The notes under the pieces: model-generated
The model's input: only the letters and a program-made list of their open reading frames with translations
The model's database searches: none
What the model was told of the DNA's origin: nothing
Origin: Phaeocystidibacter luteus
GTDB taxonomy: Bacteria; Bacteroidota; Bacteroidia; Flavobacteriales; Schleiferiaceae
NCBI RefSeq assembly: GCF_008933115.1
Contig: NZ_WBVO01000006.1
Location: 62,001 to 126,000, forward strand
DNA length: 64,000 bases
Reading direction: 5' to 3'
In this document: positions 4,638-60,078 of the stretch, piece by piece
Layout: each line of letters opens with the position of its first letter
Position numbering within the stretch: the stretch's first letter is position 1
Position numbers and translations under genes: made by a program

Positions 4638-4916
4638 ATGAAAGCAGTATGGAATGGCAAAGTGATCGCGGAGAGCGATGACACGATTATCATTGAGAAC
4701 AACCACTACTTTCCACCGAATTCGATTGTAGACGAATTCTTCTCAAAAACAGATACCCACACGGTTTGTCCGTGGAAGGGAACCGCCTCTTACTACACGA
4801 TTGAAGTGGATGGCGAACAGAACGTAGATGCGGCTTGGTACTACCCGACTCCAAAAGACGCAGCGAGCCAGATTAAGGACTACGTGGCGTTTTGGAAGGG
4901 TGTGAAGGTGGAGTAG
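4638..4916 (+). CDS. DUF427 domain protein
   Basis: This 92-residue protein consists of one DUF427 domain (Pfam PF04248). The start was placed at ATG 4638 (MKAVWNGKVIAES), where the family normally begins; an in-frame extension upstream overlaps egtD and has no family similarity. Conserved motifs seen are WNG near the N-terminus, YFP, TVCPWKG and AAWYYP. Members are small cytosolic beta-rich proteins of unknown biochemical role. Lying 11 bp after egtD and ending before a convergent repeat region, it is most likely the last gene of the redox/ergothioneine cluster. Confidence 0.85.
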   Translation: MKAVWNGKVIAESDDTIIIENNHYFPPNSIVDEFFSKTDTHTVCPWKGTASYYTIEVDGEQNVDAAWYYPTPKDAASQIKDYVAFWKGVKVE

Positions 4917-4930
4917 GATTGCTTCCTGCG

Positions 4931-5050
4931 TCAGCGAAAGGTTCCCAGTCTGACGACTGGAAAAGGGTCCTCCGCCTACCGGCGGAAGAAAGGATCCTTC
5001 ACCTGTCGGTGAATGAAAGGATTCTCCGCCTGACGGCGGAGGAAAAGCAG
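4931..5050. repeat. Hairpin array A (covarying-arm family)
   Basis: Four clear hairpins repeat every 26-27 bp: CCAGTC/GACTGG at 4945-4960, TCCGCC/GGCGGA at 4971-4986, TTCACC/GGTGAA at 4998-5013 and TCCGCC/GGCGGA at 5025-5040. Loops are TGAC, TACC, TGTC and TGAC. Linkers resemble GAAAGGATCC. A weak unit, TGC-gtca-GCG, precedes them. The arms change between units but stay complementary while the linker stays similar. It lies between the convergent DUF427 and epimerase genes. Confidence 0.85.
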
Positions 5051-5159: not shown

Positions 5160-5235
5160 CCCTCTGACTCCCGAATGGCTTCGCCTCTCGGGATTCCTCC
5201 CTACGGTCGGAACCTCCAACCCTCAATTTCGTGGA
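5160..5235 (-). repeat. Composite GGTTGGAG + TCCCGA-hairpin element (reverse copy)
   Basis: Read on the minus strand, this stretch contains GAGGGTTGGAGGTTCCGAC, then AGGGAGGAATCCCGAGAGGC, then GAAGCCATTCGGGA. It is a reverse-oriented single copy of the element found three times at 17.3-17.5 kb and once at 51.7 kb. The hairpin is TCCCGA..GGC-gaa-GCC..TCGGGA. Confidence 0.75.
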
Positions 5236-7623: not shown

Positions 7624-9636
7624 CTATTCCACAATCACCTTCCTAAAGGTACTTATTCCCTTTCTAGAGTGATATTCCAAAACATACACGCCGGCTGGAT
7701 AGCTTCCCAGCTCCATGTGGTGTGTGGATTCCGTTGTCGCCTCAGAGTTCAGGAGGGTTCCTTCTAAGCTGTACAATCGTAGAATTCCGGGTTCTGGAAG
7801 GCCGTCTATCGTGAGTTGACCTGTAGTTGGGTTTGGATAGAACGTTATGTCGTCTGCCACAACCTCTCGCATGCCAATTGACCCTGCATGAATACTGTCG
7901 CAGATCATCACATCCGTGCATTCGAAGTAGGCACGCACACATATGCGGTACACGCTATCAGCCCCATAGGTGTGTTGAACTACATCTCCCCAATACTGTG
8001 TTCCGTCGCCCATAAACCACTGTACGCTATCGGCGAGTGGTCCAGTATAGGTAAGGGTTACACTGTTCGAGTCGTTGTTCCCCGATACGCTAAAGCTAGG
8101 TTCCGGAACATCGCATTGGTATTTTGTGAGGAAGAAGCTGCGCTGGCTGCCCACTTTATAAAGGGTATCGTTCCCCATGTACATTCCTTGGTCGAAGTTA
8201 CCGCCAATGTAGAACGTGTTAGCTGGGCCAGCGGTGATGGCGTTGCCCCATGAGCCTCCCCCGAAATTGGTCACTGTTCGATCCATCGAAATCACGGAAC
8301 CATCCAATATCTCAAATCTCGTAATAAAACCATCATAACCCTGATTCGGAGCAGTTTTCAAAGTATCAGCATGTGAAGGCCAATACATCTGACCACTGTA
8401 TCCTGTAATGACTACTTCGTCGTCAACGACCTCTATACCTTGTCCTGTAGACATTCCACCGGGAACGGCCATGCTAGACCAGAGATGTGAACCGGTGGCG
8501 TCTAAAGCGGTAACAAAAGGGGAAACGGCTCCTACGGGAGAGGTATATATATGCCCAGCCAATATTGTATTGCGTTTCACAGCACCTGTAATATAAATGT
8601 TCCCTGTAGGATCAAGATTAAGGGCCTCTATTTGCATTTCATCAACACCAGCGCTCTCATGCAACCATTGCAATTGGCCAGAACTTGAAAAGCTTGCGAT
8701 GTAAGAATCGGATTGAAGGGTGTCGCCGCCGATGGTGATCCAGCCGTTCGTGTTTTTGGCTATGTTTCGTCCTGCGACAACGTAATCTCCAGAAACAGGA
8801 TTTCGTTTAAAAAAAGTTACGCCTCCCCAGTAATACGACAAATGAATAGCATTACTTGAATGCATTTGGAGTTGACTCAGTGAGATCTGTTGACCAGACT
8901 GGCTATACTCAACCACGTAAACGCCGTGAGTTGGAATAATACTATCCGTTTCCCAACGGAACTTTCCAGGACTTAAGTGACAGAGCCAAAAAAGGTTTCC
9001 ATTTGGAGCTATATCTAAATCGAGAGATGAGCTTATGTTACGATACGTAGAAAGGTCAAAAGTCATGGTATCCGGTTCTGGCATTGCCAACCACTGAAAA
9101 GTACCTGCCGTGTCATACTTCAACAAGAACATACTCTGGCGTAGGGTATCTTCGATGTAGGCGAAGTTCGAATCGTAAGGAATTCTGGGAAGGATGGTGT
9201 CAGTATCAAAGTGAACAGCTGTATTCGGTGGACCAACAGGGTTATTTTTCACATTCTCCACATAACCCGTAACGTAGATTCCATCGGTGCTATCGGCTTT
9301 CAATGCATAACCAAAATCATAATCTCTACCACCTATGACTTTAGACCACCTGTGACGACCGTCTGGAGTAAAACTACTGAGCATAAAATCAACTGTGGCA
9401 CTTACACCGACTTCAGAATAGCCAGTAAGCGAAACAGAATCAACCATCAATCCATCCCCTCCCACTATAGCCAATACATAGATATTTCCAGCTCTATCCG
9501 TTTCAAGAAACTTCACATCATTATAATCTAAAGGCCGTTGAAGTGAATTTGATGACCCACCGCGAATTGACCAGTCCCATTGAGCGAGGCTGCAAAGTGA
9601 CAGCAGTAATGATAGCGTTAAGAAAAGGGAGCGCAT
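7624..9636 (-). CDS. Secreted T9SS type A cargo protein with PKD-like domain
   Basis: This 670-residue protein begins with a Sec signal peptide (MRSLFLTLSLLLSLCSLAQ). The middle has repeated GNIYVTG/GNIYITGA-type segments like the SBBP/beta-propeller repeats of Bacteroidota surface proteins. A PKD-like domain lies at roughly residues 515-585 (VQWFMGDGTQYWGDVVQHTY). The last ~75 residues are a type A sorting domain: ITFYPNPTTGQLTIDG, LRLYSLEGTLL and PAGVYVLEY, ending KVIVE. It is predicted to be exported to the periplasm and then secreted or anchored by T9SS. No enzymatic motif was recognised. It stands alone, with a 120-bp gap to the next reverse gene. Confidence 0.9.
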   Translation of the reverse strand: MRSLFLTLSLLLSLCSLAQWDWSIRGGSSNSLQRPLDYNDVKFLETDRAGNIYVLAIVGGDGLMVDSVSLTGYSEVGVSATVDFMLSSFTPDGRHRWSKVIGGRDYDFGYALKADSTDGIYVTGYVENVKNNPVGPPNTAVHFDTDTILPRIPYDSNFAYIEDTLRQSMFLLKYDTAGTFQWLAMPEPDTMTFDLSTYRNISSSLDLDIAPNGNLFWLCHLSPGKFRWETDSIIPTHGVYVVEYSQSGQQISLSQLQMHSSNAIHLSYYWGGVTFFKRNPVSGDYVVAGRNIAKNTNGWITIGGDTLQSDSYIASFSSSGQLQWLHESAGVDEMQIEALNLDPTGNIYITGAVKRNTILAGHIYTSPVGAVSPFVTALDATGSHLWSSMAVPGGMSTGQGIEVVDDEVVITGYSGQMYWPSHADTLKTAPNQGYDGFITRFEILDGSVISMDRTVTNFGGGSWGNAITAGPANTFYIGGNFDQGMYMGNDTLYKVGSQRSFFLTKYQCDVPEPSFSVSGNNDSNSVTLTYTGPLADSVQWFMGDGTQYWGDVVQHTYGADSVYRICVRAYFECTDVMICDSIHAGSIGMREVVADDITFYPNPTTGQLTIDGLPEPGILRLYSLEGTLLNSEATTESTHHMELGSYPAGVYVLEYHSRKGISTFRKVIVE

Positions 9637-16428: not shown

Positions 16429-16433
16429 GGGAT

Positions 16434-16515
16434 CATCCGCCTAACGGCGGATGAAAGGTTCGCGATCCGCCTACCGGCGTATGCGAAAGGATCTCCTCCT
16501 GTCGGAGGAGAAAGA
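16434..16515. repeat. Hairpin array B (covarying-arm family)
   Basis: Three hairpins at 28-30 bp spacing: ATCCGCC/GGCGGAT with loop TAAC (16435-16452), ATCCGCC/GGCGTAT with loop TACC (16465-16482, one mismatch), and CTCCTCC/GGAGGAG with loop TGTC (16493-16510). Linkers are GAAAGGTTCGCG and GCGAAAGG. It lies between convergent genes, as does array A. Confidence 0.82.
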
Positions 16516-16535: not shown

Positions 16536-17246
16536 TTACTTGAGGCCCAGGGGTGGTACGGGGGTGATAATGTTCGCGATATCGTCAAAGCCATTGTCCT
16601 CGAGCCACTTTTGATAAACGGCTTTACCACTTCGAGTAGAGGCCACTCCCCATTTCAGTTTGTTGCGTAGTTTGTCATCTTCAGTTAGTGGCTGAATTAG
16701 ATTGTGCTGTTCAAACTCCGATCGAAGGTGACTGAATATCATGGCCACGGAAACGGATAGATTATAACTCTCTACAAATCCGTACATAGGGATTTGTATG
16801 TGGTAATCCGCATTTTTTGAACTGTCACTAGAAATGCCCTCCCATTCGTTACCAAAAATCACAGCTATTGGTCTATCTAAGGGTAATTGTTGAATGGCCA
16901 TGCCACTTTCGTGTGGTGTAGTGGCAGCAATAGCGTATCCACGCTCCTTTAAGCTGTTGATCGATTGACCTAGGTCTACTGATCGTTGGATATCCAACCA
17001 TTTATCCGACCCCCTCGATATCTCTGACTTGAATCCCACCTGCCACTCTGGCTCAACCATATGTAATTCTTGAAAACCTAATGCGTCCATCGTTCTTATG
17101 ACTGCGGAAGCATTTTGCTCTTTCATGGTGTTCTCGAGTATAGCAACGGCACGTCTGGTTCGCTTAGAGAGCACTTCATCAAATCGTGCTATGCGTTCCT
17201 TGGTCAGAAAACCTGAGATGTAGTTCCAATGTGTTTCGAGGTTCAT
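16536..17246 (-). CDS. trmH: TrmH-family tRNA/rRNA 2'-O-methyltransferase
   Basis: This 236-residue SpoU/TrmH (SPOUT) enzyme has the three characteristic motifs: ENTMKEQNASAVIRTMDALG (motif 1 with the catalytic Arg), PIAVIFGNEWEGIS (motif 2) and IPMYGFVESYNLSVSVAM (motif 3), which together form the knotted SAM-binding site. The N-terminal extension (TKERIARFDEVLSKRTR) resembles TrmH, which makes Gm18 in tRNA; the exact target nucleotide is inferred. It stands alone between repeat regions. Confidence 0.88.
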   Translation of the reverse strand: MNLETHWNYISGFLTKERIARFDEVLSKRTRRAVAILENTMKEQNASAVIRTMDALGFQELHMVEPEWQVGFKSEISRGSDKWLDIQRSVDLGQSINSLKERGYAIAATTPHESGMAIQQLPLDRPIAVIFGNEWEGISSDSSKNADYHIQIPMYGFVESYNLSVSVAMIFSHLRSEFEQHNLIQPLTEDDKLRNKLKWGVASTRSGKAVYQKWLEDNGFDDIANIITPVPPLGLK

Positions 17247-17265
17247 GGGGCGAAGATAGAGGATA

Positions 17266-17510
17266 TGGAGGTTGGAGGGTTGGAGGGTTAGAGGGTTAGA
17301 GGGTTAGAGGGTTGGACGGGACGATGTTCCGACTGAAAGGAGGAATCCCGAGAGGCGCAGCCGATTCGGGAGAGGGGTGGACCGGGTGATGTTCCGACTG
17401 AAAGGAGGAATCCCGAGAGGCGGAGCTGATTCGGGAGAGGGTTGGACGGGTTGATGTTCCGACTGAAAGGAGGAATCCCGAGAGGTGGAGCTGATTCGGG
17501 AGTTAGACAG
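17266..17510. repeat. Three tandem copies of the octamer + TCCCGA-hairpin element
   Basis: The stretch opens with GGTTGGAG and GGTTAGAG octamers (17270-17315). Three ~65-70-bp copies follow, each containing GATGTTCCGACTGAAAGGAG and then a hairpin AATCCCGAGAGGC...GATTCGGGAG, with outer stem TCCCGA/TCGGGA and inner GGC/GCC. Copies start near 17322, 17390 and 17452 and differ at a few loop positions. Confidence 0.85.
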
Positions 17511-17529
17511 CATAGGTAGGGCTAATGGG

Positions 17530-17820
17530 CCACGGGCTAAAGCTCTGTGGCAATTGGAGTGGCTCTTACCGATACCACGGGCTAAAGCGCGGAGGCATTT
17601 GGAGGAAGCATTTTTCTTACCACGGGCTGAAGCCCTGTGGCAATTGGAATGGCCCTTACTGATACCACGGGCTGAAGCGCGGAGGCATTTGGAGGAAGCA
17701 TTTTTCTTACCACGGGCTGAAGCCCCGTGGCATTTGGAATGGCCCTTACTGATACCACGGGCTAAAGCCCCGTGGCATTCGGAGGAAACCTTTTAGGCAC
17801 CACGGGCTAAAGCCCTGTGG
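17530..17820. repeat. 45-bp tandem hairpin repeat, seven copies
   Basis: CCACGGGCT begins at 17530, 17575, 17620, 17665, 17710, 17755 and 17800, an exact 45-bp period. Each forms CCAC-GGGCT/AGCCC-GTGG or a variant (AGCGC-GGAGG) around a 2-nt loop. Linkers alternate between a TTGGAATGGCCCTTACTGAT type and a TTGGAGGAAGCATTTTTC type, so the higher-order unit is ~90 bp. Because 45 is divisible by three, one frame stays open as 15-residue repeats, but no start signal or domain supports translation. Confidence 0.88.
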
Positions 17821-17875
17821 TACATGGATTCAAGTTGAACCCGAGGCTATATCCTATCTCGAATGGATTGGCCTA

Positions 17876-18115
17876 GCTTGCCGAGGAACGAGGCCTTATT
17901 GATCGCCGAAGGCGTCAATCCTTGCGGCCGAAGGACGCCTTGTGCATGCCGAAAGCAGGCGCCTTATCCTCCGCCGAAGGGCGGAGCGATCCTTGCCGAC
18001 CGCAGGGAGGCTCCTTTCCGCCGGTAGGCGGATCCTTATCCGCCGCCAGGCGGATTCCTTTGCCGACCGTAGGGAGGCATCCTTTTGCCTCCGCGGCAGC
18101 GGAGCGCAATCCCCC
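17876..18115 (-). repeat. Hairpin array C (covarying-arm family, reverse orientation)
   Basis: About ten hairpins with linkers of the ATCCTT type (reverse complement AAGGAT), that is, the array is inverted relative to A and B. Clear units include CTCCGCC/GGCGGAG with a GAAG loop, TCCGCC/GGCGGA with loops GGTA and GCCA, GCCTCCGC/GCGGAGcGC and two copies of GCCGACCG..GGGAGGC. Several other units have GAA loops (CGCC-gaa-GGCG, GCGGCC-gaa-GGACGC). It fills the gap between trmH and trxA. Confidence 0.82.
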
Positions 18116-32903: not shown

Positions 32904-35900
32904 TCAGTTCAGCTTGACCTGCAGGGCGTCAATGTTATTGAGTTTATCTAACAGCTCCTTGGTGATTTCGACACGCTTGGTTCGGCTTGGCATAGTCACC
33001 GAAATGTTCTCCGTTGTATCAGCAACGATAAAGGTCACCTTCTTCTTGCCCGGAGAACTATCAAGGGCTTGCTCAACTTCGTCCATCAAATATTCATCCA
33101 CTTCGTCCAGACGCATCGTCACCTTGATGCTCTTGCTCAACTCTCCCATAATGTCGGAGAGCAGCTTGACATCAAAGAAGTCCGAATTGATTCGCTCTAT
33201 AACTTCCCCGTCCTTTTCCCAGCTCCGTTTAGTCACTTTGAGCTTCCCATACAGCATTTGGTCTTTCACCAAGAAGTGTCGGAATTTGAGATAGGATTCG
33301 CCGAAGAGTCTAAATTCATGTGAACCCCTAAGGTCCTCCATCGTGAAGAATCCAAATCCCTTGCCATTCTTTGATACACGGTGCTGAACATCGGTTACAA
33401 TGCCTGCGATGTGAATCTCGCGCCCTACGAGCTGCTCTTCATTGTTGAAAGCTTCGACAGGATGCGTGCAGAAGGAGCGTATTTCATACCGGAAATCATC
33501 CAACGGATGCGAACTGAGGTACATCCCGTTTACTTCCTTCTCCCTGCTCAATTGCTGGATTCTCGACCACGGTTCAACTTCTGGAAGCGGTGGCTCGGGA
33601 ATTTGAACTTCAGACGATTCGCCGAATAACGAAACCTGAGCAGAATCTTCACTGGCTTTCACGTTTTGAGCGTATTTGATCGCCTTTTCAATAAATGAAC
33701 GACCGTCTCCTTCATCTGCAAAGTAGATGGCGCGATGTTCCTTGTCGAAACTGTCGAAAGCGCCGCCCAACGCCAAACTTTCTATGGTTTTCCTGTTTAC
33801 GATGCGGAGATCTACACGCTTCAAGAAATCAAAGATTCCTCTGTATTTGCCATTCTCTTTACGCTCAGCCACAATGTGGTCTACAGCGCTTCCTCCAACT
33901 CCGCGCATACCTCCTAAACCGAAGCGAATTGCGCCTTCGTCGTTCACTCGGAAAGTGTATTCCGATTCATTCACATCCGGAAGAAGCACAGGAATCTGCA
34001 TTCTTCGGCACTCTTCCATGAAGAACGTCACCTGCTTGATGTCGTTCATGTTGTTGGAGAGGACAGAGGCCATGTACTCGGCCGGATAGTGCGCTTTCAG
34101 GTAGGCCGTTTGGTAGGCGACCCACGCGTAACAAGTTGAGTGTGACTTGTTAAAGGCGTAGGATGCAAATGCTTCCCAGTCCTTCCAAATCTTATTGAGC
34201 TTGTCTTCATCATGTCCGCGCTCTTTACCTCCATCAATAAACTTTGGCTTGAGCGTTTCTAGTAGTGCGAAGATCTTCTTACCCATTGCCTTACGCAGGG
34301 TATCGGCTTCACCTTTGGTAAACCCAGCTAGCTTTTGCGAGAGGAGCATAACTTGCTCCTGATACACGGTAATTCCGTAGGTTTCCTCTAGATACTCTTG
34401 CATATCGTCGAGGTCGTACGTGATCTCCTCCACCCCGTGCTTTCTTCGAACGAAGGAAGGAATGTACTCGAGCGGACCTGGACGATACAAGGCGTTCATG
34501 GCGATGAGATCCGCGAATACGGTAGGCTTTAAGTCCTTGAGGTACTTTTGCATACCTGCGGATTCATATTGGAAGATACCTACCGTTTCTCCGCGTTGGA
34601 ACAGCTCATAGGTCTTTCTGTCATCCAGAGGAACTGTATCCATATCGAGCTCTACACCATGGTTTTCCTTGACCATCTCCACCGCATCTTTAATGAGCGT
34701 GAGCGTTTTTAGTCCAAGGAAGTCCATTTTGAGTAGTCCGGCGCTCTCCACCACAGAGTTATCGAACTGGGTACACCACATGTTCGAATCTTTGGCAAGA
34801 GAAACAGGCACGAGTTCACGAATATCACTTGGGGTGATAATGACCCCACAGGCGTGGATACCGGTACTTCGCACGGAGCCTTCAAGAACGTGTGCTTGCT
34901 GAAGCGTTCGTCCCTCCATATCATCCTTCTGATACAGGTTGACCATCGACTTCGCCTTGTCGAAATCGTCTGCCCTGAACTTCGATTTCATGGTCTTCTC
35001 ATCCATTGCAAATAGTTTGCGGAGAGAAGTATCTGGCATCAACTTGGTGAGCTTATCTGCCACATCAAACGGTAAATCGAGCACGCGGGCTGTATCCTTA
35101 ATGGAGCTCTTCGCGGCCATGGTACCGTAGGTGATGATTTGTGCAACCTGACTAGATCCGTACTTGTCGATTACGTATTGAATGACCTTATCGCGACCAC
35201 GGTCGTCGAAGTCAATATCGATATCGGGAAGGGATACACGCTCAGGATTGAGGAATCTCTCAAATAGAAGATCGTATGCGATGGGGTCTACATTCGTAAT
35301 TCCAATGCAGTAGGCCACCGCCGATCCTGCGGCGGAACCACGTCCAGGTCCCACGCTCACTCCCATATTTCGGGCCTCGTTACAGAAGTCTTGCACAATC
35401 AAGAAGTAGCCCGGATATCCCGTATTGGCAATGGTTTCAAGCTCGAAGTCTAGACGTTCCCGAATCTCATCTGTGATGACCTCATACCGCTTTTTGGCAC
35501 CCTCATAGGTCAGGTGACGAAGGAAGGCATTTTCACCGCGCTTGCCGCCGTCGTGCTGATCTTCTTCATGCTGAAACTGCTCGGGAATTTCAAAGGCAGG
35601 AAGGAGAACATCGCGTGCGAGTTCGAAGGGCTCTACTTTGTCGATGATTTCGCGAATCGTTGAAATGGCTTTCGGCAAATCCGCAAACTGCCGTTTCATT
35701 TCCGCTTGCGACTTAAAGTAGAACTCGTCGTTCGGGAACCCGAAGCGGAATCCGCGGCCTCGTCCAATCGGAGTCGATTTTTTCTCACCTTCCTTGACAC
35801 ACAGGAGAATGTCGTGCGCTTCGGCATCTTCCTTATCTAAGTAGAAAGTGTTGTTTGCGGCGAAATACTTCACACCGTACTTCTCAGCGAAGCGCAGAAG

Positions 35901-37289
35901 TGTTTCGTTCACGCGGTCTTCTTCGGGTAGATTGTGACGGTTGAGTTCGACGTAGAAATCTTCACCGAACTGTTCGTGCCACCAGCAAAACGCTTCTTCG
36001 GCTTGTTTCTCACCCACATTCAAAATGAGTTGAGGAACCTCGCCTTGAAGTCCGCCGGTAGTTGCAATAACGTTTTCCTTGTGCTCGAGAATCAGCTTTT
36101 TATCAATCCTTGGCACGTAGTAGAATCCGTTGATGAATCCCTCAGAACTCATCTTGGCCAGATTCAAATAGCCTTCTTTATTCTTTGCGAGAAGGGGAAT
36201 CTGGAAGCCATCATCCTTTCTCGATTTATCCAAATGATCTTTACAGACGTAGAAGTCGCAGCCCACCACTCCTTTGATAGGCTCTTTGTCGTACGGTTCA
36301 CCCTTGGCTTCGGCATCTTTCGCTTCGCCGGCTATGCGCTTGTTGTAATCGTTAACCGCCTTCACGAAGTGGAATGCCCCCATCATGTTTCCTAGGTCGG
36401 TCATCGCCACAGCCGGCATGCCCTCATCGCCCGCTCGATTGACCAGGGCCTTTACATCACTTACGGCTTGGAGAATGGAGTACTGCGTATGGTTGTGAAG
36501 GTGAGCGAAAGGTACATCACTGAGCTGCTGAAGATTATCGTCAATGGCAGCGTCTGACAAACCTGGAGATGCAGCGTCTTGCTCCTTTTTGCGAATTGCT
36601 TCACTTTGCTTCTTTAGGTTGCGGTGCTTGAGCCCAATCGGAGCAATTACGTCTGGATTCGCCTCAACGAAGGCCTTCACTTGGGTGTCGTCAAACCCAA
36701 GCTCAGACGGCGTGTACTCAGCTCTTCGAACGAGTTCTAGGAAACAGCGTGTAGTAGCTTCAACGTCGGCCGTGGCATTGTGGGCTTCGCCAAACGGACT
36801 TCCAAAGAGGTGTTGGTGAAGCTCGGTGAGTGTTGGCAGTTTGAATTTGCCGCCTCGTCCGCCAGGAATCTGGCACATCTCAGCCGTATGCTCGTTACAG
36901 GTATCCAGAACGGGGAGATCTGTAATCGGACTCTCGATTCCCAAGCGATAGAGTTCACACCCTACCACATTGATATCGAAGCCAACATTTTGACCCACGT
37001 TAAACTTGGCCTTGTGGAGCGTATTCACAAAATGCTCCATCGCCTCTTTGAGCGACACACCGTCACGCTCTGCCAATGCAGTTGAAATCCCGTGAATCTG
37101 TTCTGATTCAAAAGGGATATCAAATCCTTCTGGTTTGATGAGGTATTCGACTTGCTCGAGAAGTTCACCTTGGGCACCGTGTAGCTGCCACGCGATTTGA
37201 ACAACGCGAGGCCAATTATCCGTGTCGGTTATAGGCGCACGGAAGTCTTTTGGCAAACCGGTAGTCTCGGTATCGAATACTAAAAACAT
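32904..37289 (-). CDS. dnaE: DNA polymerase III alpha subunit with N-terminal exonuclease
   Basis: This 1461-residue replicative polymerase carries its own proofreading domain. Residues 1-~190 are a DnaQ-like 3'-5' exonuclease (DTETTG at 6-11, HNATADVEAT at 170-179). A linker follows, then PHP (FAHLHNHTQYSILQA near 260), palm and fingers with GPGRGSAAGS (~648) and catalytic PDIDIDFDDRGRD (~688-700), then tandem HhH and an OB fold (IHIAGIVTDVQHRVSKNGKG). The exonuclease-DnaE fusion is known from Bacteroidota and explains the extra length over ~1160-residue DnaE. The ATG at 37289 follows a repeat-rich intergenic region. Confidence 0.95.
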   Translation of the reverse strand: MFLVFDTETTGLPKDFRAPITDTDNWPRVVQIAWQLHGAQGELLEQVEYLIKPEGFDIPFESEQIHGISTALAERDGVSLKEAMEHFVNTLHKAKFNVGQNVGFDINVVGCELYRLGIESPITDLPVLDTCNEHTAEMCQIPGGRGGKFKLPTLTELHQHLFGSPFGEAHNATADVEATTRCFLELVRRAEYTPSELGFDDTQVKAFVEANPDVIAPIGLKHRNLKKQSEAIRKKEQDAASPGLSDAAIDDNLQQLSDVPFAHLHNHTQYSILQAVSDVKALVNRAGDEGMPAVAMTDLGNMMGAFHFVKAVNDYNKRIAGEAKDAEAKGEPYDKEPIKGVVGCDFYVCKDHLDKSRKDDGFQIPLLAKNKEGYLNLAKMSSEGFINGFYYVPRIDKKLILEHKENVIATTGGLQGEVPQLILNVGEKQAEEAFCWWHEQFGEDFYVELNRHNLPEEDRVNETLLRFAEKYGVKYFAANNTFYLDKEDAEAHDILLCVKEGEKKSTPIGRGRGFRFGFPNDEFYFKSQAEMKRQFADLPKAISTIREIIDKVEPFELARDVLLPAFEIPEQFQHEEDQHDGGKRGENAFLRHLTYEGAKKRYEVITDEIRERLDFELETIANTGYPGYFLIVQDFCNEARNMGVSVGPGRGSAAGSAVAYCIGITNVDPIAYDLLFERFLNPERVSLPDIDIDFDDRGRDKVIQYVIDKYGSSQVAQIITYGTMAAKSSIKDTARVLDLPFDVADKLTKLMPDTSLRKLFAMDEKTMKSKFRADDFDKAKSMVNLYQKDDMEGRTLQQAHVLEGSVRSTGIHACGVIITPSDIRELVPVSLAKDSNMWCTQFDNSVVESAGLLKMDFLGLKTLTLIKDAVEMVKENHGVELDMDTVPLDDRKTYELFQRGETVGIFQYESAGMQKYLKDLKPTVFADLIAMNALYRPGPLEYIPSFVRRKHGVEEITYDLDDMQEYLEETYGITVYQEQVMLLSQKLAGFTKGEADTLRKAMGKKIFALLETLKPKFIDGGKERGHDEDKLNKIWKDWEAFASYAFNKSHSTCYAWVAYQTAYLKAHYPAEYMASVLSNNMNDIKQVTFFMEECRRMQIPVLLPDVNESEYTFRVNDEGAIRFGLGGMRGVGGSAVDHIVAERKENGKYRGIFDFLKRVDLRIVNRKTIESLALGGAFDSFDKEHRAIYFADEGDGRSFIEKAIKYAQNVKASEDSAQVSLFGESSEVQIPEPPLPEVEPWSRIQQLSREKEVNGMYLSSHPLDDFRYEIRSFCTHPVEAFNNEEQLVGREIHIAGIVTDVQHRVSKNGKGFGFFTMEDLRGSHEFRLFGESYLKFRHFLVKDQMLYGKLKVTKRSWEKDGEVIERINSDFFDVKLLSDIMGELSKSIKVTMRLDEVDEYLMDEVEQALDSSPGKKKVTFIVADTTENISVTMPSRTKRVEITKELLDKLNNIDALQVKLN

Positions 37290-37383: not shown

Positions 37384-37515
37384 GGATTCCGCGCTTGTCA
37401 GCGCGTAAAAGGGTGCTCGCCATTAGGCAATCAAAGGATCCTCCGTCAGTTGACGGAGGAAAGACGCTGGCCTTCGGCCGAGCGCAAGGCCTCCTTCGTC
37501 GGCAAGAAAGCAATA
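37384..37515. repeat. Hairpin array D (covarying-arm family)
   Basis: Units include CGCGC/GCGCG with a 6-nt loop (37390-37405), a weak GCC-atta-GGC, CTCCGTC/GACGGAG with loop AGTT (37441-37458), GCTGGCC-ttc-GGCCgAGC and a decayed TTCGTCGGCAAG tail. Linkers are TAAAAGGGTGC, CAAAGGATC and GAAAGACGC. It lies between the divergent dnaE and the small secreted gene. Confidence 0.78.
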
Positions 37516-37555: not shown

Positions 37556-37740
37556 AAGGCTTTAGCTCGTGGTTCTTCTCTCCTTCAATGACCATCTAGC
37601 TCCAGCTGGTGGTTCTTCATCTCTTCCAAATACCACCTAGCTTTAACTGGTGGTATGCCGCCCCTTACAACATTCCAACTACCACTAACTTCAGTTGGTG
37701 GTGATCCGCTAATTGCCCAGTGACTTCTGTCGGTGGCCCT
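37556..37740. repeat. Second array of ~45-bp-spaced CCAC/GTGG hairpins
   Basis: Hairpins ACCATCTAGCT-cc-AGCTGGTGGT (from 37591), ACCACCTAGCT-tt-AACTGGTGGT (from 37632), ACCACTAACT-tc-AGTTGGTGGT (from 37681) and a degenerate GCCCAGTGACT-tc-TGTCGGTGG (~37716) are spaced 35-49 bp. A half-hairpin (TTTAGCTCGTGG) precedes them at 37561. The design resembles the 17530-17820 array but the stem sequence differs. With array D it fills the 560-bp gap before the next gene. Confidence 0.72.
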
Positions 37741-51690: not shown

Positions 51691-51708
51691 GGAGGTTGGA
51701 GGATTAGA

Positions 51709-51793
51709 AAGTTAGAGGGTTAGAGGGTTAGAGGGTTGGAGGTTCCGACTGGAAGGGGGAGTCCCGCGAGGCGAAGCCGATTCGGGAGTCAGA
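51709..51793. repeat. Octamer + TCCCGA-hairpin composite element, further copy
   Basis: GGTTAGAG-type octamers at ~51711-51740 are followed by GGTTCCGACTGGAAGG and a hairpin GTCCCGCGAGGC/GAAGCCGATTCGGGAG. It is the same order as in 17266-17510. A diverged hairpin of the same design (AATCCCGCGCGG..CATGCGGGAG) lies at ~52358-52385. Confidence 0.78.
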
Positions 51794-52059
51794 GGCTTTA
51801 GGCTTCAGGCTTCAGGCTTTGGGCTTCAGGCTTTGGGCTTCAGGCTTCAGGCTTCAGGCTTCAGGCTTTGGGCTTTAGGCTTTAGGCTTTGGGCTTTAGG
51901 CTTCAGGCTTTGGGCTTTAGGCTTTAGGCTTTAGGCTTTAGGCTTCAGGCTTTGGGCTTTAGGCTTCAGGCTTTAGGCTTTGGGCTTTGGGCTTTGGGCT
52001 TTAGGCTTCAGGCTTTAGGCTTTGGGCTTTGGGCTTTGGGCTTCAGGCTTTGGGCTTTA
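51794..52059. repeat. 38-copy heptamer tandem repeat
   Basis: The 266 bp are exactly 38 heptamers GGCTTNN in continuous register. The last two bases take only three values: TA (13 copies), CA (12) and TG (13); CG never occurs. It starts right after a composite element and ends before a small GGGGCTTTAAACCCC hairpin at about 52091. The remaining sequence to 52479 holds a diverged TCCCGC/GCGGGA hairpin and no gene. Confidence 0.93.
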
Positions 52060-52479
52060 CGCTCCAGCTTTAAAGGTACTTCCTCGAGTGGGGCTTTAAA
52101 CCCCTCCCCGGTCTCAAGTTACACAGAAACAATCAAAGCTTCCGAATCTCAACAAAGACATTAATGAGATTTTGGGGCATTCGCCTAAGGAGTGAATTGT
52201 CCACGAATTGTCCACCAGACATCCACCGATTGTCCCCATGAGAATAGTTACTGTTGTGAACGAAAAATAGAACTTCGCCATAGGGGGCGAGGTTAGGACC
52301 CCCGAGAAAAAGAGGTTCGGAAGGCCTAAAGACAACGGTTCCGAAGGAACAAAGGAATCCCGCGCGGTGGAGCCCATGCGGGAGTTAGAGAACAAAGGCG
52401 TTAAGCAACGGCTTCTCACCACTCGTTGTGTTGTCAACACTAGAGGCATTGCATATCTTCACCCAAATTCTCTCTTGCA

Positions 52480-55828: not shown

Positions 55829-57076
55829 TTAATCATCCAACAAAACAGTGGTTCCTACCGATATACCGAAGTACGTCTGCTCCGAAACTCCTCCTAAATC
55901 TTCCCCAAAGAATTCACTTTCCAAACCCGCTATGGCGTAGAAAATGCCAATCGAGTTCAACGATTTTCCAATCTTGATTCTAGAACCTCCTGTAATGCTC
56001 ACTAACGATTGTGTGACTTCACGACCGTTCAACGTGGCGCGATAAGGGTTGTAACTCATTCCGAAGTATATGTCGCGGCCGTCCTTCACCGAACCGGTAA
56101 CGCCAGAACTTATGCGGAGGTTAGACGGCGATGTTTCGTCAATCGGAGCTTGACCATCATAGTAATTATGCTCCGTTTCGAGCGTGTATGCACCGTCAAG
56201 CGCCCACAACCACTTTTCGTTGAACTTGTACGTAAAGCCGAGGCGAAAATCTACTGGATTCACCTTATGTGCCGTAGCGTCAATGATATCAATTTCTTGA
56301 GATGGATTACCCGAGGAATAGGTGAATGCGTAGTAGTCACCTGTACCTCCTAATCTGATGCTTGGTGTAGTGACGCGCAAACCGACCGAGAATTTCTCCC
56401 ATCGTTTCAGTATTCCCACATTTAAGTAGAGAGAATAGCTTTCAAGTGTTTGTCGGTATGAACCAATCGAAACAATACTAGGGTCGTTTACCGCATAAAT
56501 ATTGATTCCGACCGTGTTCATGTAGTAGTAATACTGTCCGGTAAGGGTTCCGCCTACAGACCATCCGTTTCCTAGCCTACGAGCGGCACTAAAACCCGCC
56601 AGGAAATAATCTTCCGAGAAATTATGTTGGGCCTGAATATTCAATGGGTTTCCAGCATTCTGCAACTGCCAGAACTCCTTCCCTTCAATGTTGAAAGAAT
56701 TTGGAATGAGAAGCGAAAACGCAACCGCCCAATCGCCCCAGGTTTTGGTGGAAATCAAGCTGCTTGGAAGTGAACGATAGGCAGACCCTTCAAAATCCAA
56801 CTCCTCACCCTGTATAGTAACAAAGGGATCCGATTTAAACTCAAAGCTGAAGTAGGCGTTCCCAGAAAATGAAAAGTTTGTCCCGTGTAAATCGGTCAGC
56901 GCCGCTGGATTGTAGTACACCGCTCCGGTCGAATTCACACCACCGGTACCCGTATTGCCAATCAACGACTCCACATCGCCAAGCGGCATTAAGTTTTGGT
57001 TGAATTCTCCTTGCGCAAAAGAAGCAATCGAAAGAAACAGGGCACTGATGGTGACCCCGAGGTGAAGGTACTTCAT
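55829..57076 (-). CDS. FadL/OmpP1-like outer-membrane transport protein
   Basis: This 415-residue protein has a signal peptide (MKYLHLGVTISALFLSIASFAQ) and the FadL-like plug motif SLIGNTGTGGVNSTGAVYYNPAALTDL just after it. The remainder is a 14-stranded barrel pattern (WSVGGTLTGQYYYY, FRLGFTYKFNEKWLWALDGAYTLETEH). FadL relatives transport hydrophobic compounds across the outer membrane; the substrate is unknown. Upstream lies hairpin array E. Confidence 0.83.
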   Translation of the reverse strand: MKYLHLGVTISALFLSIASFAQGEFNQNLMPLGDVESLIGNTGTGGVNSTGAVYYNPAALTDLHGTNFSFSGNAYFSFEFKSDPFVTIQGEELDFEGSAYRSLPSSLISTKTWGDWAVAFSLLIPNSFNIEGKEFWQLQNAGNPLNIQAQHNFSEDYFLAGFSAARRLGNGWSVGGTLTGQYYYYMNTVGINIYAVNDPSIVSIGSYRQTLESYSLYLNVGILKRWEKFSVGLRVTTPSIRLGGTGDYYAFTYSSGNPSQEIDIIDATAHKVNPVDFRLGFTYKFNEKWLWALDGAYTLETEHNYYDGQAPIDETSPSNLRISSGVTGSVKDGRDIYFGMSYNPYRATLNGREVTQSLVSITGGSRIKIGKSLNSIGIFYAIAGLESEFFGEDLGGVSEQTYFGISVGTTVLLDD

Positions 57077-57111
57077 GGTGGTAGTGGTTAGTTGGAGGAA
57101 GGTACGAAAAG

Positions 57112-57210
57112 AATCCGCCTAAGGGCGGATAAGGTCGATTCCCCTTTTGGCAATCGAAAGGCGCTGGCCTGCGGCCTAGCACAAGGCTTCCTTCGTCAGC
57201 AAGAATGGCT
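57112..57210. repeat. Hairpin array E (covarying-arm family)
   Basis: Units ATCCGCC/GGCGGAT with loop TAAG (57113-57130), GATT-CC-cctttt-GG-AATC, GCTGGCC-tgc-GGCCtAGC (57163-57180) and a decayed TTCGTCAGCAAG tail, with linkers AAGGTC, GAAAGGC and ACAAGGC. It starts 36 bp upstream of the FadL-like start codon. The GCTGGCC unit and the tail are also in array D. Confidence 0.78.
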
Positions 57211-57365: not shown

Positions 57366-57450
57366 TTGCATTTCGCCGAATGGCGCAATGCCTTGCACGA
57401 AGTGCCTTACTCACGCAGTGAGTCCTTTCCCGCTTCAATGCGGGAATCTA
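57366..57450 (-). repeat. Hairpin array F (covarying-arm family, reverse orientation)
   Basis: Units TCGCC-gaat-GGCG, GCAC-gaa-GTGC, CTCAC-gca-GTGAG and CCCGC-ttcaat-GCGGG with linkers TGCCTT, CTTA and TCCTTT (reverse of AAGG-type linkers). It runs up to the stop codon of the TonB-type receptor gene. Confidence 0.72.
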
Positions 57451-59823
57451 TCTCCTCCTCCCCGAATACGTCATCGCCTCTCCCTTTCCAAAGCTATAAC
57501 TGAAGCCAAGGGTGAAGAATCGGCCGCGCTGAGAGAAGCTGTAGGTTTGAAATGTAGGCTGGTCTACGAAGGTTTCACGAATGCGTGATGCGAAGATGTC
57601 GCGGATACTCATGTCAATAACCGCCTTGCCGCCCCAAAGCTTTTTGCGAACTCCCAAGTTTGCAAAGGCAAAACCGGAAACGTTGCCTTGAACCGTTCTG
57701 TAAGACGAGTTGTAGTCTCCCGATATCTCAAATTCAAATGAGGCTGGGAGCTTAAAACGAGAGGTTAGGCTGGTTGACCATTGGTTACCCACAAAATCGA
57801 AATTCTGACCTTCAAATTCGCCATTTCGAACAAAGACACCATAGTTGAAATCTCCGTTAATTGACATCCAGTCTACGGGATTGTACTTACCGTTTACTTC
57901 TAGACCAATTTGGTGACGAGTACCGATGTTCATCGGTAGCGTGATGTTTACGTTGTCCTCCAAAACCGTTACCCTTTCAATAACATCCGTAGTGTAGAGG
58001 TTATAAATGCTCGTATTGAACGATGCTTTCTCAAAGATGAAAATACCGGTCAACTCGTATGAATCGGCGAATTCGGGTTGCAGATTGGGGTTACCCTGAC
58101 GAATGTTGTAGTTGTTGCGAACGTTGAAGAATGGGTTGAGGTCCCACAAACGCGGGCGATAGATTCGCTTGGAATAGCCCGCCTGAAGTGAGAATCGCTC
58201 GGTAATTTCGTACGACACGTGTGCTGATGGAAACAGGTTCGTATAATTCTGTGTGTTCACTTCATTCGTGGTGGTGAGCACCGTATTCAGATCGGTATTC
58301 TCAATTCGCGCACCAATTTTCACACCCCAGCGAGTGGCTTCGTAGGATCCCGTAGCATATACCCCAAGCACCTTCTGATCAAACTCGAAGTTGTTCGTAA
58401 GGCCCGAATCCAGCACGAAATCGCCACCAGCTGTTTCATTGAACACGGCATAGTCGTTCCCCACATCATTCAATTCATACTGAGCTCCCGCCTCCAATGT
58501 GATGGCATCCGTAAGCGGATTGGTATAATCTACCTTGTAAATGAAGTTCTGTTGGAAATACTCCGTTTCCGTTTTTTGATCTGGATTCAACGACACCCCT
58601 TCGAGTGTCACGTTCTGGAAATCAGAAGTAAGTGATTTTCCGAAGAAACTACCCTGTGTGCTGAACTGAAGTACGTGGTCTTCATGGTTTCGAAACTGAC
58701 GTTCATATTGAAGATCGTACTGATACTTAGGGTTACCCGCACTGGTCTCCTCTTCCCTTCTGTATTCTGAAATAAGCTGATTGTCACCATCAAAAACCTG
58801 GAAATTGGTTTCGGAGGGCTGACTCTCATCTTCGAAAGCAAAGTTTCCAGAGAGTGTGATGATGTTGAACGAATCAATGTAGTAGTCGCTACCAATCGTG
58901 ATGTTGAAAAACTGCTCATTTCTATACTCAACACCTTCACTTTCAACGCGGTTGCTATCCACTAAATCGTAATTAATGGCCTCGTTGTACCGCGGCAGCG
59001 AGCGATAACCACCGCCTAGCTGTGTGAAGAAGTTGAAATCCTCCGTTCTTCGATTCAAACTAACCCCCACGCTGTGATTGTGAGGAATTCCCGTATTCAA
59101 ACTAACGGATCCATTAAAGCCCTTCTTCTCGTCTTTCTTTAGAATGATATTGATGATTCCCGAAGAACCTTCGGCCTCGTATTTAGCTGAAGGATTGGTG
59201 ATTACCTCCACTCTTTCAATCATATCGGCAGTAAGCGTCCCCAGAGCGTTGCTTCCTTCATCAGAAAGTACCGATGGCTTGCCGTTAATGAGAATTTGGA
59301 CTCCAGAATTCCCCCTCAAGCTAATTTGCCCTTCTATGTCCACGTTCACCGAAGGAACGTTGTTGAGTAGGTCCATCGCACCCATTCCGGTGCTGGCCAA
59401 ATCCTGACCAACGTTGAAAACACGCTTGTCCAATTGAAACTCCATGGACGACTTCTCAACCGTAACATCCACTTCACCAATCGTTTGCGAATCTTCAACT
59501 AGCCTTACCGTGCCAAGCGAAATAACTCCGTTTTGAATGGTGAAGTCGGTGATTCTCTCGGTTCTGTAACCGAAGAAATTGATCTCGACGTAAAAATCTT
59601 CTTTGGAAGTGGATATGCGGAAACGACCGTCGTTTCCAGTAGTAGTAGCGGCTAACGGTTCTTCCACTCCTGGCGCTTTGAGGAGAACGGATGCGTAAGG
59701 CACTGGGTCGCCCGCTGTTGATTCAACAACCTGTCCGGTTACTTCATAACTCGTTTGTGCAGAGAGGGTAACGGTTAGAAGTGTAGCAAAAATGAGTAGC
59801 GCTTTGTCAAGTATAATCTTCAT
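57448..59823 (-). CDS. TonB-dependent receptor-like outer-membrane protein
   Basis: This 791-residue protein starts at ATG 59823 with a signal peptide (MKIILDKALLIFATLLTVTLSAQ). A carboxypeptidase-regulatory-like domain follows (SYEVTGQVVESTAGDPVPYASVLL...), then a plug (VFNVGQDLASTGMGAMDLLNNVPSVNVDIEG, GVQILINGKPSVLSDEGS, IERVEVITNPSAKYEAEGSSGIINI) and a large barrel ending FTLGFSYSFGKGEAM. This is the 'outer membrane beta-barrel family' type of TonB receptor. It lacks an adjacent SusD-like gene, so glycan uptake is not implied; the substrate is unknown. Confidence 0.9.
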   Translation of the reverse strand: MKIILDKALLIFATLLTVTLSAQTSYEVTGQVVESTAGDPVPYASVLLKAPGVEEPLAATTTGNDGRFRISTSKEDFYVEINFFGYRTERITDFTIQNGVISLGTVRLVEDSQTIGEVDVTVEKSSMEFQLDKRVFNVGQDLASTGMGAMDLLNNVPSVNVDIEGQISLRGNSGVQILINGKPSVLSDEGSNALGTLTADMIERVEVITNPSAKYEAEGSSGIINIILKKDEKKGFNGSVSLNTGIPHNHSVGVSLNRRTEDFNFFTQLGGGYRSLPRYNEAINYDLVDSNRVESEGVEYRNEQFFNITIGSDYYIDSFNIITLSGNFAFEDESQPSETNFQVFDGDNQLISEYRREEETSAGNPKYQYDLQYERQFRNHEDHVLQFSTQGSFFGKSLTSDFQNVTLEGVSLNPDQKTETEYFQQNFIYKVDYTNPLTDAITLEAGAQYELNDVGNDYAVFNETAGGDFVLDSGLTNNFEFDQKVLGVYATGSYEATRWGVKIGARIENTDLNTVLTTTNEVNTQNYTNLFPSAHVSYEITERFSLQAGYSKRIYRPRLWDLNPFFNVRNNYNIRQGNPNLQPEFADSYELTGIFIFEKASFNTSIYNLYTTDVIERVTVLEDNVNITLPMNIGTRHQIGLEVNGKYNPVDWMSINGDFNYGVFVRNGEFEGQNFDFVGNQWSTSLTSRFKLPASFEFEISGDYNSSYRTVQGNVSGFAFANLGVRKKLWGGKAVIDMSIRDIFASRIRETFVDQPTFQTYSFSQRGRFFTLGFSYSFGKGEAMTYSGRRR

Positions 59824-60078
59824 GTGGGTCTGTTTGAGTCCGGTTTCCACGGTTTTGAGAGATGGATATCTACCGTCGAATTTTCAGTCTCACTTTCTAA
59901 ACGGCAAAGATGGCTCAGAGTTCAATTACATCCTATCGACGTTATCAATAAAACCTTCTGATTCGCCTATTAGACCGAGGTTTAAAACGATTCCATCTTT
60001 TAACAACCTCTTAGCAACTTGCCATTTTTGAAGGTTGAGATTCCAACTGATTTCAATCAAAGAATCTACCTTTAGCGC

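What the first reader, a model, noticed from the sequence alone, without database searches (positions are those of the whole stretch)
4931..5050. Family of hairpin arrays with covarying arms and a conserved AAAGGAT linker
In six places (4931-5050, 16434-16515, 17876-18115, 37384-37515, 57112-57210, 57366-57450) short hairpins repeat at about 18-30-bp spacing. Stems are mostly 5-7 bp and loops 3-6 nt (TACC, TGAC, TGTC, GAA etc). Linkers keep an AAAGGAT-like core, but arm sequences differ between neighbours (CCAGTC, TCCGCC, TTCACC, CTCCTCC, CTCCGTC) while staying complementary. A sequence-conserved linker with structure-conserved, sequence-free arms is unusual and differs from REP/BIME or CRISPR design. 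It could be a self-propagating structure or a site read by a stem-recognising protein. All arrays are intergenic.
Basis: partly seen in the sequence, partly recalled or inferred. Interest (0 to 1): 0.78.

Follow-up and report, generated by a model that had tools for sequence, protein, structure and literature searches.

The report
Tandem hairpins with free-sequence stems
Between many genes of one bacterium lie chains of short DNA hairpins whose stems differ in letters but keep their shape, joined by a near-constant AAAGGAT-like spacer; they fill gaps that are free of them in its sister species and look like an unusual relative of known mobile bacterial palindromes.

Summary
The window's arrays exceed dinucleotide shuffles (42 units against a mean of 14.6, maximum 23). 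A linker-only pattern hits 86 times in the 3.2-Mb genome against 9 for the reversed control, and 37 of 80 distinct segments hold a perfect stem of at least 5 bp against 4.8 expected. Arms are truly variable. A covariance model scores 78 hits here and none in 49 relatives (two of the same genus) or 394 sampled genomes of the phylum.

Caps are GNNA/GNA closed by C-G, 29 units carry a tandem G-A internal loop there and none on the AAAGGAT strand, and mismatches are mostly G-A or G-T there. Arrays start exactly at stop codons or beside promoter -7 boxes, and are absent from orthologous sites of sister species. Some are the first module of a larger mosaic ending in REP-like palindromes.

Best reading: a REP/BIME-like, tag-linked palindromic element spread at the DNA level and recognised by single-strand shape. 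The enzyme is unknown: the genome's three Y1 transposases are flanked by other palindromes. CsrA-sponge and ordinary mRNA roles are disfavoured.

The parts
4917..4940 (+). First unit of array A: GATTGCTTCCTGCGTCAGCGAAAGG, an imperfect hairpin that starts right after the stop codon TAG (4914-4916)
   Evidence: orthologous genes end at the same point without an array
4945..5047 (+). Array A: CCAGTC-TGAC-GACTGG, TCCGCC-TACC-GGCGGA, TTCACC-TGTC-GGTGAA, CTCCGCC-TGAC-GGCGGAG with linkers AAAAGGGT, GAAAGGAT, GAAAGGAT
   Evidence: array absent from the orthologous site in both congeners (L132, L133)
16429..16515 (+). Array B: three hairpins filling nearly all of the 107-bp gap between convergent genes; starts at TAG-GGGAT
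   Evidence: congener G002 reads AGGTAGGG-ACCCGGG at the same stop codon
17876..18115 (-). Array C: about ten hairpins (units Z S P P S B K Q W T), first module of a composite element; begins with a G9 run in array orientation
   Evidence: several further composite copies share the same right-hand end
17250..17875 (-). Rest of the composite in order: short spacer, REP-like palindromes CCACGGGGCTTTAGCCCGTGG (17531-17820), 65-bp GA-hairpin repeats (17306-17502), octamers TCTAACCC (17252-17316), ending at the promoter of the gene 16536-17246
   Evidence: 65-mer 57 copies in this genome, 0 in 39 relatives
37384..37510 (+). Array D: CGCGCT-TGTC-AGCGCG, a weak GCC-ATTA-GGC hairpin, CCTCCGTC-AGTT-GACGGAGG, CGCTGGCC-TTC-GGCCGAGCG, GCCTCCTTCGTCGGC; 95 bp upstream of the start of the DNA polymerase III alpha gene 32904-37289
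57107..57204 (+). Array E: ATCCGCC-TAAG-GGCGGAT, CGATT..AATCG, GCTGGCC-TGC-GGCCTAGC, GCTTCCTTCGTCAGC; runs away from the start of gene 55829-57076
57366..57447 (-). Array F: starts directly after the stop codon of gene 57448-59850 (TAG-ATTCCCGC); hairpins TTCCCGC..GCGGGAA, ACTCAC-TGC-GTGAGT, GCAC-TTC-GTGC, an imperfect GCATT hairpin; AAGG linkers

Best explanation
The arrays are lineage-specific, non-autonomous DNA elements of the REP/BIME kind, built of repeated units (5'-GAT-hairpin-AAAGG-3'; on the other strand ATCCTTT-hairpin). Shown: constant tag, free stems, whole-unit differences between copies, one hairpin-forming strand, sites free of arrays in sister species, and starts flush with stop codons and promoter boxes. 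Inferred: units are copied or inserted at the DNA level while single-stranded. A protein, or the replication and repair machinery, recognises the shape (stem, G-A mismatches and GNNA/GNA cap on the ATCCTTT strand) and the tag but not the stem letters. Every unit ends in AAAGG, so it supplies a new tag for the next unit and arrays can grow and be reshuffled. An enzyme of the Y1/HUH type (cuts next to a 4-base tag beside a hairpin) would fit, but none was linked to these units. Arrays then expand until they meet sequence that selection protects.
For: Constant linker and free arms. Fourteen compensated double changes among paralogous units. Strand specificity: tetraloops T..C 19 of 37 and G..A 0, closing pair C-G 69 of 88, and predicted energies favour the ATCCTTT strand by about 5 sd over random loops; TC/TC internal loops 29 and GA/GA 0 on the AAAGGAT strand; single mismatches that are G-A or G-T on the ATCCTTT strand 21, on the other strand 3. 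Pyrimidines outnumber purines at the third loop position on that strand, so the caps are not the RNA GNRA type. Dispersed composites share order and right end but differ by whole units. Lineage-specific; no array at orthologous sites, exact left joints TACGG|ATTGC (lysS) and TTGAAAG|GGGGG (spoU). Of twelve arrays downstream of genes, eleven start within 4 bp of the stop codon and in one the stop lies inside the first hairpin. REP-like modules lie in the same composites and share the GGGCTTTAGCCC core with the flanks of one of the genome's Y1 genes.
Against: No enzyme identified: all three Y1_Tnp genes are flanked by other palindromes, none by AAAGG-linked hairpins. No second strain was available, so movement of a unit was never seen. 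Stop-to-promoter replacement with loss of old intergenic sequence (transketolase locus) is not what a plain insertion leaves. Recent block duplications (L054, L056) look like ordinary slippage or unequal exchange.
Confidence: 0.5

Rival explanations
1. Passive origin: slippage, unequal exchange and template switching at quasi-palindromes create, perfect and multiply hairpins in intergenic DNA under weak selection; no dedicated enzyme. Template switching changes both arms at once and so mimics compensation.
For: Clear block duplications (L054 three-hairpin block repeated, L056 two-hairpin block repeated); about as many broken pairs as compensated ones; sister species carry other intergenic tandem repeats.
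Against: Does not explain the same tag between unrelated stems at dozens of sites, the fixed TC/TC internal loop inside otherwise free stems, or the constant module order of dispersed composites.
Confidence: 0.27
2. RNA-level function: the arrays are transcribed 3' ends or leaders (terminators, stabilisers or protein-binding sites) and the linker is the protein site.
For: Arrays begin exactly at stop codons; an intrinsic terminator seen at the transketolase locus of both congeners is absent where the composite sits; stems retain complementarity.
Against: The favoured strand (ATCCTTT) is not the one in the mRNA of the gene whose stop codon the array follows, and for arrays beside promoters it lies upstream of the start site. 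No Rfam family matches at gathering threshold.
Confidence: 0.13
3. The arrays are moved by one of the three Y1 (RAYT-type) transposases present, as passengers of the REP-like module at the other end of the composite.
For: Composites end in palindromes with the same GGGCTTTAGCCC core as those flanking the Y1 gene in L033.
Against: Many arrays have no REP module next to them; the Y1 genes are not flanked by AAAGG units.
Confidence: 0.08
4. Csr/Rsm-like sponge: tandem hairpins with ARGGAU in single-stranded linkers titrate CsrA.
For: AAAGGAT fits the ARGGAU core of CsrA sites (own knowledge).
Against: No CsrA in this genome or 12 relatives, while the search finds it in E. coli, B. subtilis and Thermotoga; the linker sense strand is the less favoured fold.
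Confidence: 0.02

Closest known systems
REP elements and BIMEs (GTAG- and CGTC-tagged palindromes), REPINs, with RAYT/TnpA-REP transposases
   Same: 20-40-bp intergenic palindromes with a constant unpaired tag at the hairpin foot and variable, complementary stems; often clustered in mosaics; lineage-specific (PMC3733652, PMC2817692, PMC6006769)
   Different: Tag is AAAGGAT/ATCCTTT rather than GTAG or CGTC; dozens of stem sequences in one genome and different stems in neighbouring units; head-to-tail tandem rather than inverted pairs; no transposase gene flanked by these units found
Atypical secondary structures flanking subclass 2.6 TnpA-Y1 genes of Bacteroidetes
   Same: Bacteroidetes, Y1 genes present, repeated structures elsewhere in the genome (PMC6006769)
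   Different: In this genome the structures beside the Y1 genes are other palindromes; the subclass of these Y1 genes was not determined
IS200/IS605 ends (IS608)
   Same: Single-strand hairpin recognised with a tetranucleotide guide 5' of its foot, only one strand processed (PMC6006769)
   Different: No transposase gene between units, no left/right end pair, several to many tandem units
CsrB/RsmZ-type sponge RNAs
   Same: Tandem hairpins with GGA in linkers (own knowledge)
   Different: CsrA absent; many intergenic loci; opposite strand favoured
BOX elements of Streptococcus pneumoniae
   Same: Modular intergenic repeats with variable numbers of a middle module (own knowledge)
   Different: BOX modules are conserved in sequence (own knowledge); here stems are free

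Membership tests
REP/BIME | Short intergenic palindrome in many copies per genome | tested here: met
   86 linker-pair hits, 78 model hits, 32 arrays examined
REP/BIME | GTAG or CGTC tag at one end | tested here: not met
   Tag is AAAGG[AG]T, on the other strand A[CT]CCTTT
REP/BIME | Family members share a stem sequence with limited complementary variation | tested here: not met
   25 different 5' arms among 37 hairpins; 7.8% cross-complementary
REP/BIME | Associated RAYT gene flanked by the same palindromes | tested here: not met
   Three Y1_Tnp genes, 1.5-kb flanks read, other palindromes
REP/BIME | Mobilised as DNA by the cognate transposase | not testable with these tools
   No second strain available and no experiment
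CRISPR | Identical repeats separated by unrelated unique spacers | tested here: not met
   Constant part is a 5-8-nt linker, variable part is a palindrome
Csr/Rsm sponge RNA | CsrA/RsmA encoded in the genome | tested here: not met
   PF02599 absent in own and 12 relatives; control genomes positive
Known RNA family (Rfam 15) | Match at gathering threshold | tested here: not met
   Only tRNA-Asp in the window

The most novel reading that the evidence does not exclude
A self-propagating genetic element defined by shape rather than sequence: a single-strand hairpin unit with free stem letters, tandem G-A pairs and a GNNA/GNA cap, inserted next to an AAGG tag that each new unit recreates, mobilised by an as yet unknown structure-reading enzyme.
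Probability: 0.2. Interest if true: 0.85.

Novelty: new variant of a known kind. Interest (0 to 1): 0.6.

Why it matters
Known bacterial palindromic repeats are recognised largely by their sequence. Here dozens of different stems share only a short tag, an internal G-A loop and a cap, so whatever makes or keeps them must read structure. The arrays are absent from the sister species, so strain comparison could catch the process in the act. If an enzyme is found it would be a structure-specific, nearly sequence-independent single-strand DNA processing system; if none exists, the arrays are a natural experiment on how palindromes arise and are perfected. They also alter a stop codon, stand in place of a terminator and abut promoter boxes, so they may affect gene expression.

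Tried and rejected
Csr/Rsm sponge: rejected, no CsrA. Complement of the 16S 3' end (AGAAAGGA): considered, not favoured because T, not G, follows AAAGGA in the linker. Y1 transposase ends: the genes' flanks carry other palindromes. CRISPR: rejected on anatomy. Rfam: no match.

Generic tandem-hairpin density without the linker was too noisy to separate this genome from relatives. An 18-mer scan of 85,000 species genomes gave 8 isolated hits in unrelated phyla, read as chance; own or very near genomes may be left out of that collection. A replication-strand explanation of orientation was dropped because arrays in both orientations lie within a few hundred bases (L054). Literature searches found no description of AAAGGAT-linked hairpin arrays, but the library is partial.

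Full report
WHAT IS THERE. In the window, linker-hairpin-linker units number 42 against a mean of 14.6 (maximum 23) in 40 dinucleotide shuffles, and 29 lie in clusters against 4.3 (maximum 10). The window lies in a 3.21-Mb, 27-contig genome. The proteins flanking the arrays include a type IX secretion signal domain and an outer-membrane beta-barrel protein, which fits Bacteroidota; the organism's name was not given.

GENOME-WIDE. A pattern that looks only at linkers (AAAGGN{14,32}AAAGGAT) hits 86 times against 9 for the reversed control. Of 80 distinct matched segments, 37 hold a perfect stem of 5 bp or more (shuffled mean 4.8, maximum 10). These 37 have 25 different 5' arms; arms of different units complement in only 7.8% of combinations. 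Examples from one array: CATTTGAC-TGAA-GTCAAATG, TACAGCC-TATC-GGCTGTA, CCGCC-TATC-GGCGG, CCCCGCT-TGC-AGCGGGG. AAAGG[AG]T is the main linker; TAAGG, CAAGG and AAAAG also occur.

COVARIATION. Joining 140 folded, linker-defined segments by a minimum spanning tree of same-length neighbours gives 14 double changes that keep Watson-Crick pairing, 15 single changes that make or break a pair and 3 G-T changes. By a rough estimate of mine, independent substitutions at this divergence would give less than one paired double change. The segments were kept for folding well, which favours complementary outcomes somewhat, and some neighbours may be independent hairpins rather than descendants, so this shows maintained palindromy, not selection as such. 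Recent block duplicates in L054 show unpaired changes (TAACCT..AGGCTA).

WHICH STRAND. Four measures agree that the structure belongs to the strand reading ATCCTTT. (a) Of 37 non-redundant tetraloops, 19 are T..C (GNNA on the other strand) and none G..A; triloops lean the same way (8 of 14 T.C, 2 G.A); the closing pair is C-G in 69 of 88. (b) Predicted energies, with DNA or RNA parameters, favour the ATCCTTT strand by about five standard deviations over a random-loop control. (c) 29 units carry a 2x2 internal loop TC/TC, which is tandem GA/GA on the other strand; none has GA/GA on the AAAGGAT strand. Outer stems around this loop are free (GCC, TTGCTC, TTGTC, TTACCC, TAGCCT, TCACC, TTACT). (d) Isolated stem mismatches are C-T 14 and A-C 7 (G-A and G-T on the ATCCTTT strand), against G-A 2 and G-T 1 in the AAAGGAT sense. 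Units are related to each other, so these counts are not fully independent. Tandem sheared G-A pairs and C(GNA)G or C(GNNA)G caps are known from exceptionally stable DNA mini-hairpins (own knowledge). The third loop base on that strand is mostly a pyrimidine, so these are not RNA-type GNRA loops.

WHERE THEY SIT. Read in the AAAGGAT direction, arrays start at a gene boundary and run away from it, whether that boundary is a gene's end or its start (nearest-ORF calls, a few of them on short doubtful ORFs). All six window arrays fit this reading. Of twelve arrays downstream of genes, eleven start within 4 bp of the stop codon and in one the stop codon lies inside the first hairpin. Several arrays next to gene starts begin beside a TAnnTTTG-like box (TATCTTCG, TAGCTTTG, TACATTTG), the Bacteroidetes -7 element (own knowledge).

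EMPTY SITES. Two genomes of the same genus align with the first 20 kb of the window in pieces, the longer ones at about 66-76% DNA identity. At array A, array B (one congener aligned beyond the stop codon) and array C they have no array. At spoU on contig C9, both congeners have a short gap before the convergent gene, while this genome has several hundred bp of arrays and the protein end ..RLKGGI* instead of ..RLRSRLRK* or ..ALKSKLK*, so the array replaced the last codons and supplied the stop; the far terminator is kept. At lysS the conserved sequence runs to TACGG and then the array begins. At transketolase the composite reaches from the stop codon TAA to the TACCTTTA box of the next gene, and the terminator seen in both congeners is absent.

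LINEAGE. A covariance model of the unit finds 78 matches here and none in 49 relatives, two of them of the same genus, and none in 394 other genomes sampled across the phylum (strict filters, so weak matches could be lost). An 18-mer of the commonest junction gives only scattered hits in unrelated phyla. Sister species have other intergenic tandem repeats of their own.

COMPOSITES. At several loci, including window 17250-18115, the array is the first module of a mosaic with fixed order: hairpin array (right end ..B K Q W T in most complete copies), short spacer ending TTGAATCCAAGTA, REP-like palindromes CCACGGGGCTTTAGCCCGTGG, 65-bp repeats with the same TC/TC design, octamers CCCTCTAA, then the next gene's promoter or terminator. 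Copies differ by whole units: Z S P P S, Z V P P S, Z V S, Z V, V P S (my unit letters). The 65-mer has 57 copies here and none in 39 relatives.

MECHANISM. Shown: tag, free stems, one structural strand, whole-unit variation, lineage-restricted origin, flush boundaries. Inferred: DNA-level propagation through a single-stranded, folded state. A unit GAT-hairpin-AAAGG placed after an AAAG or AAGG sequence recreates the tag, which explains tandem growth with unrelated stems and the junctions TTGAAAG|G, TAA|GGAT and TGA|AAGG. Y1/HUH enzymes work like this (a hairpin plus a tetranucleotide guide at its 5' foot; PMC6006769). But the three Y1 genes are flanked by other palindromes, so membership in the REP/RAYT system is not shown. 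An RNA role in the adjacent mRNA is disfavoured because the favoured strand is not the transcribed one. A CsrA sponge is excluded by the absence of CsrA. Passive slippage with template switching remains the main rival.

NOVELTY. Tagged palindromes with variable stems are known as REP superfamilies (PMC3733652, PMC2817692). New here are the tag, the extent of stem freedom inside single arrays, the G-A grammar on one strand, the head-to-tail arrangement and the flush fit to stop codons and promoter boxes. I rate it a new variant of a known kind, with about one chance in five of something categorically new.

Noticed in passing
window 17530-17820: REP-like palindromes CCACGGGCTAAAGCCCTGTGG in a 45/90-bp tandem array; the core resembles the palindromes flanking the Y1 transposase genes in L032 and L033.
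   Followed up: partly
window 17306-17502 and 5191-5212: 65-bp repeat TTCCGACTGAAAGGAGGAATCCCGAGAGGCGCAGCCGATTCGGGA with the same GA/GA and GNA hairpin design; 57 copies of its core in the genome, none in 39 relatives.
   Followed up: partly
window 51793-52063: About 39 copies of a 7-bp unit AGGCTTT, next to GGGTTAGA octamers at 51694-51742 like those in the composites.
   Followed up: no
L070 (C9:1-9500) 7940-8420: SpoU-family gene whose last codons and stop are supplied by the array (..RLKGGI* against ..RLRSRLRK* or ..ALKSKLK* in congeners).
   Followed up: yes
L070 1-110 and 8240-8361: The same array appears inverted at the start of contig C9 and 8 kb further on; real inverted repeat or assembly end effect.
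   Followed up: no
L193 968-1398 (sister species G001, upstream of lysS): 119-bp tandem repeat in the sister species with the hairpin CGCGAAAGGATTCGCG, in which AAAGGAT lies in the loop and inner stem, followed by AGAAAGGA and CCTCTAA-type repeats; possibly a related but different solution.
   Followed up: partly
L139 1480-2240 (transketolase): Intrinsic terminator present in both congeners is absent where the composite element fills the gap; effect on read-through unknown.
   Followed up: no
L058/L148 and L147: Arrays of short hairpins with AAG linkers and TGC/TTC loops (CATTC-TGC-GAATG, GCAC-TTC-GTGC), a second dialect of the same design.
   Followed up: no
window 37559-37654: 41-bp repeats with GCTTTAGCTGGTGG palindromes, resembling the repeats beside the Y1 gene in L032.
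   Followed up: no
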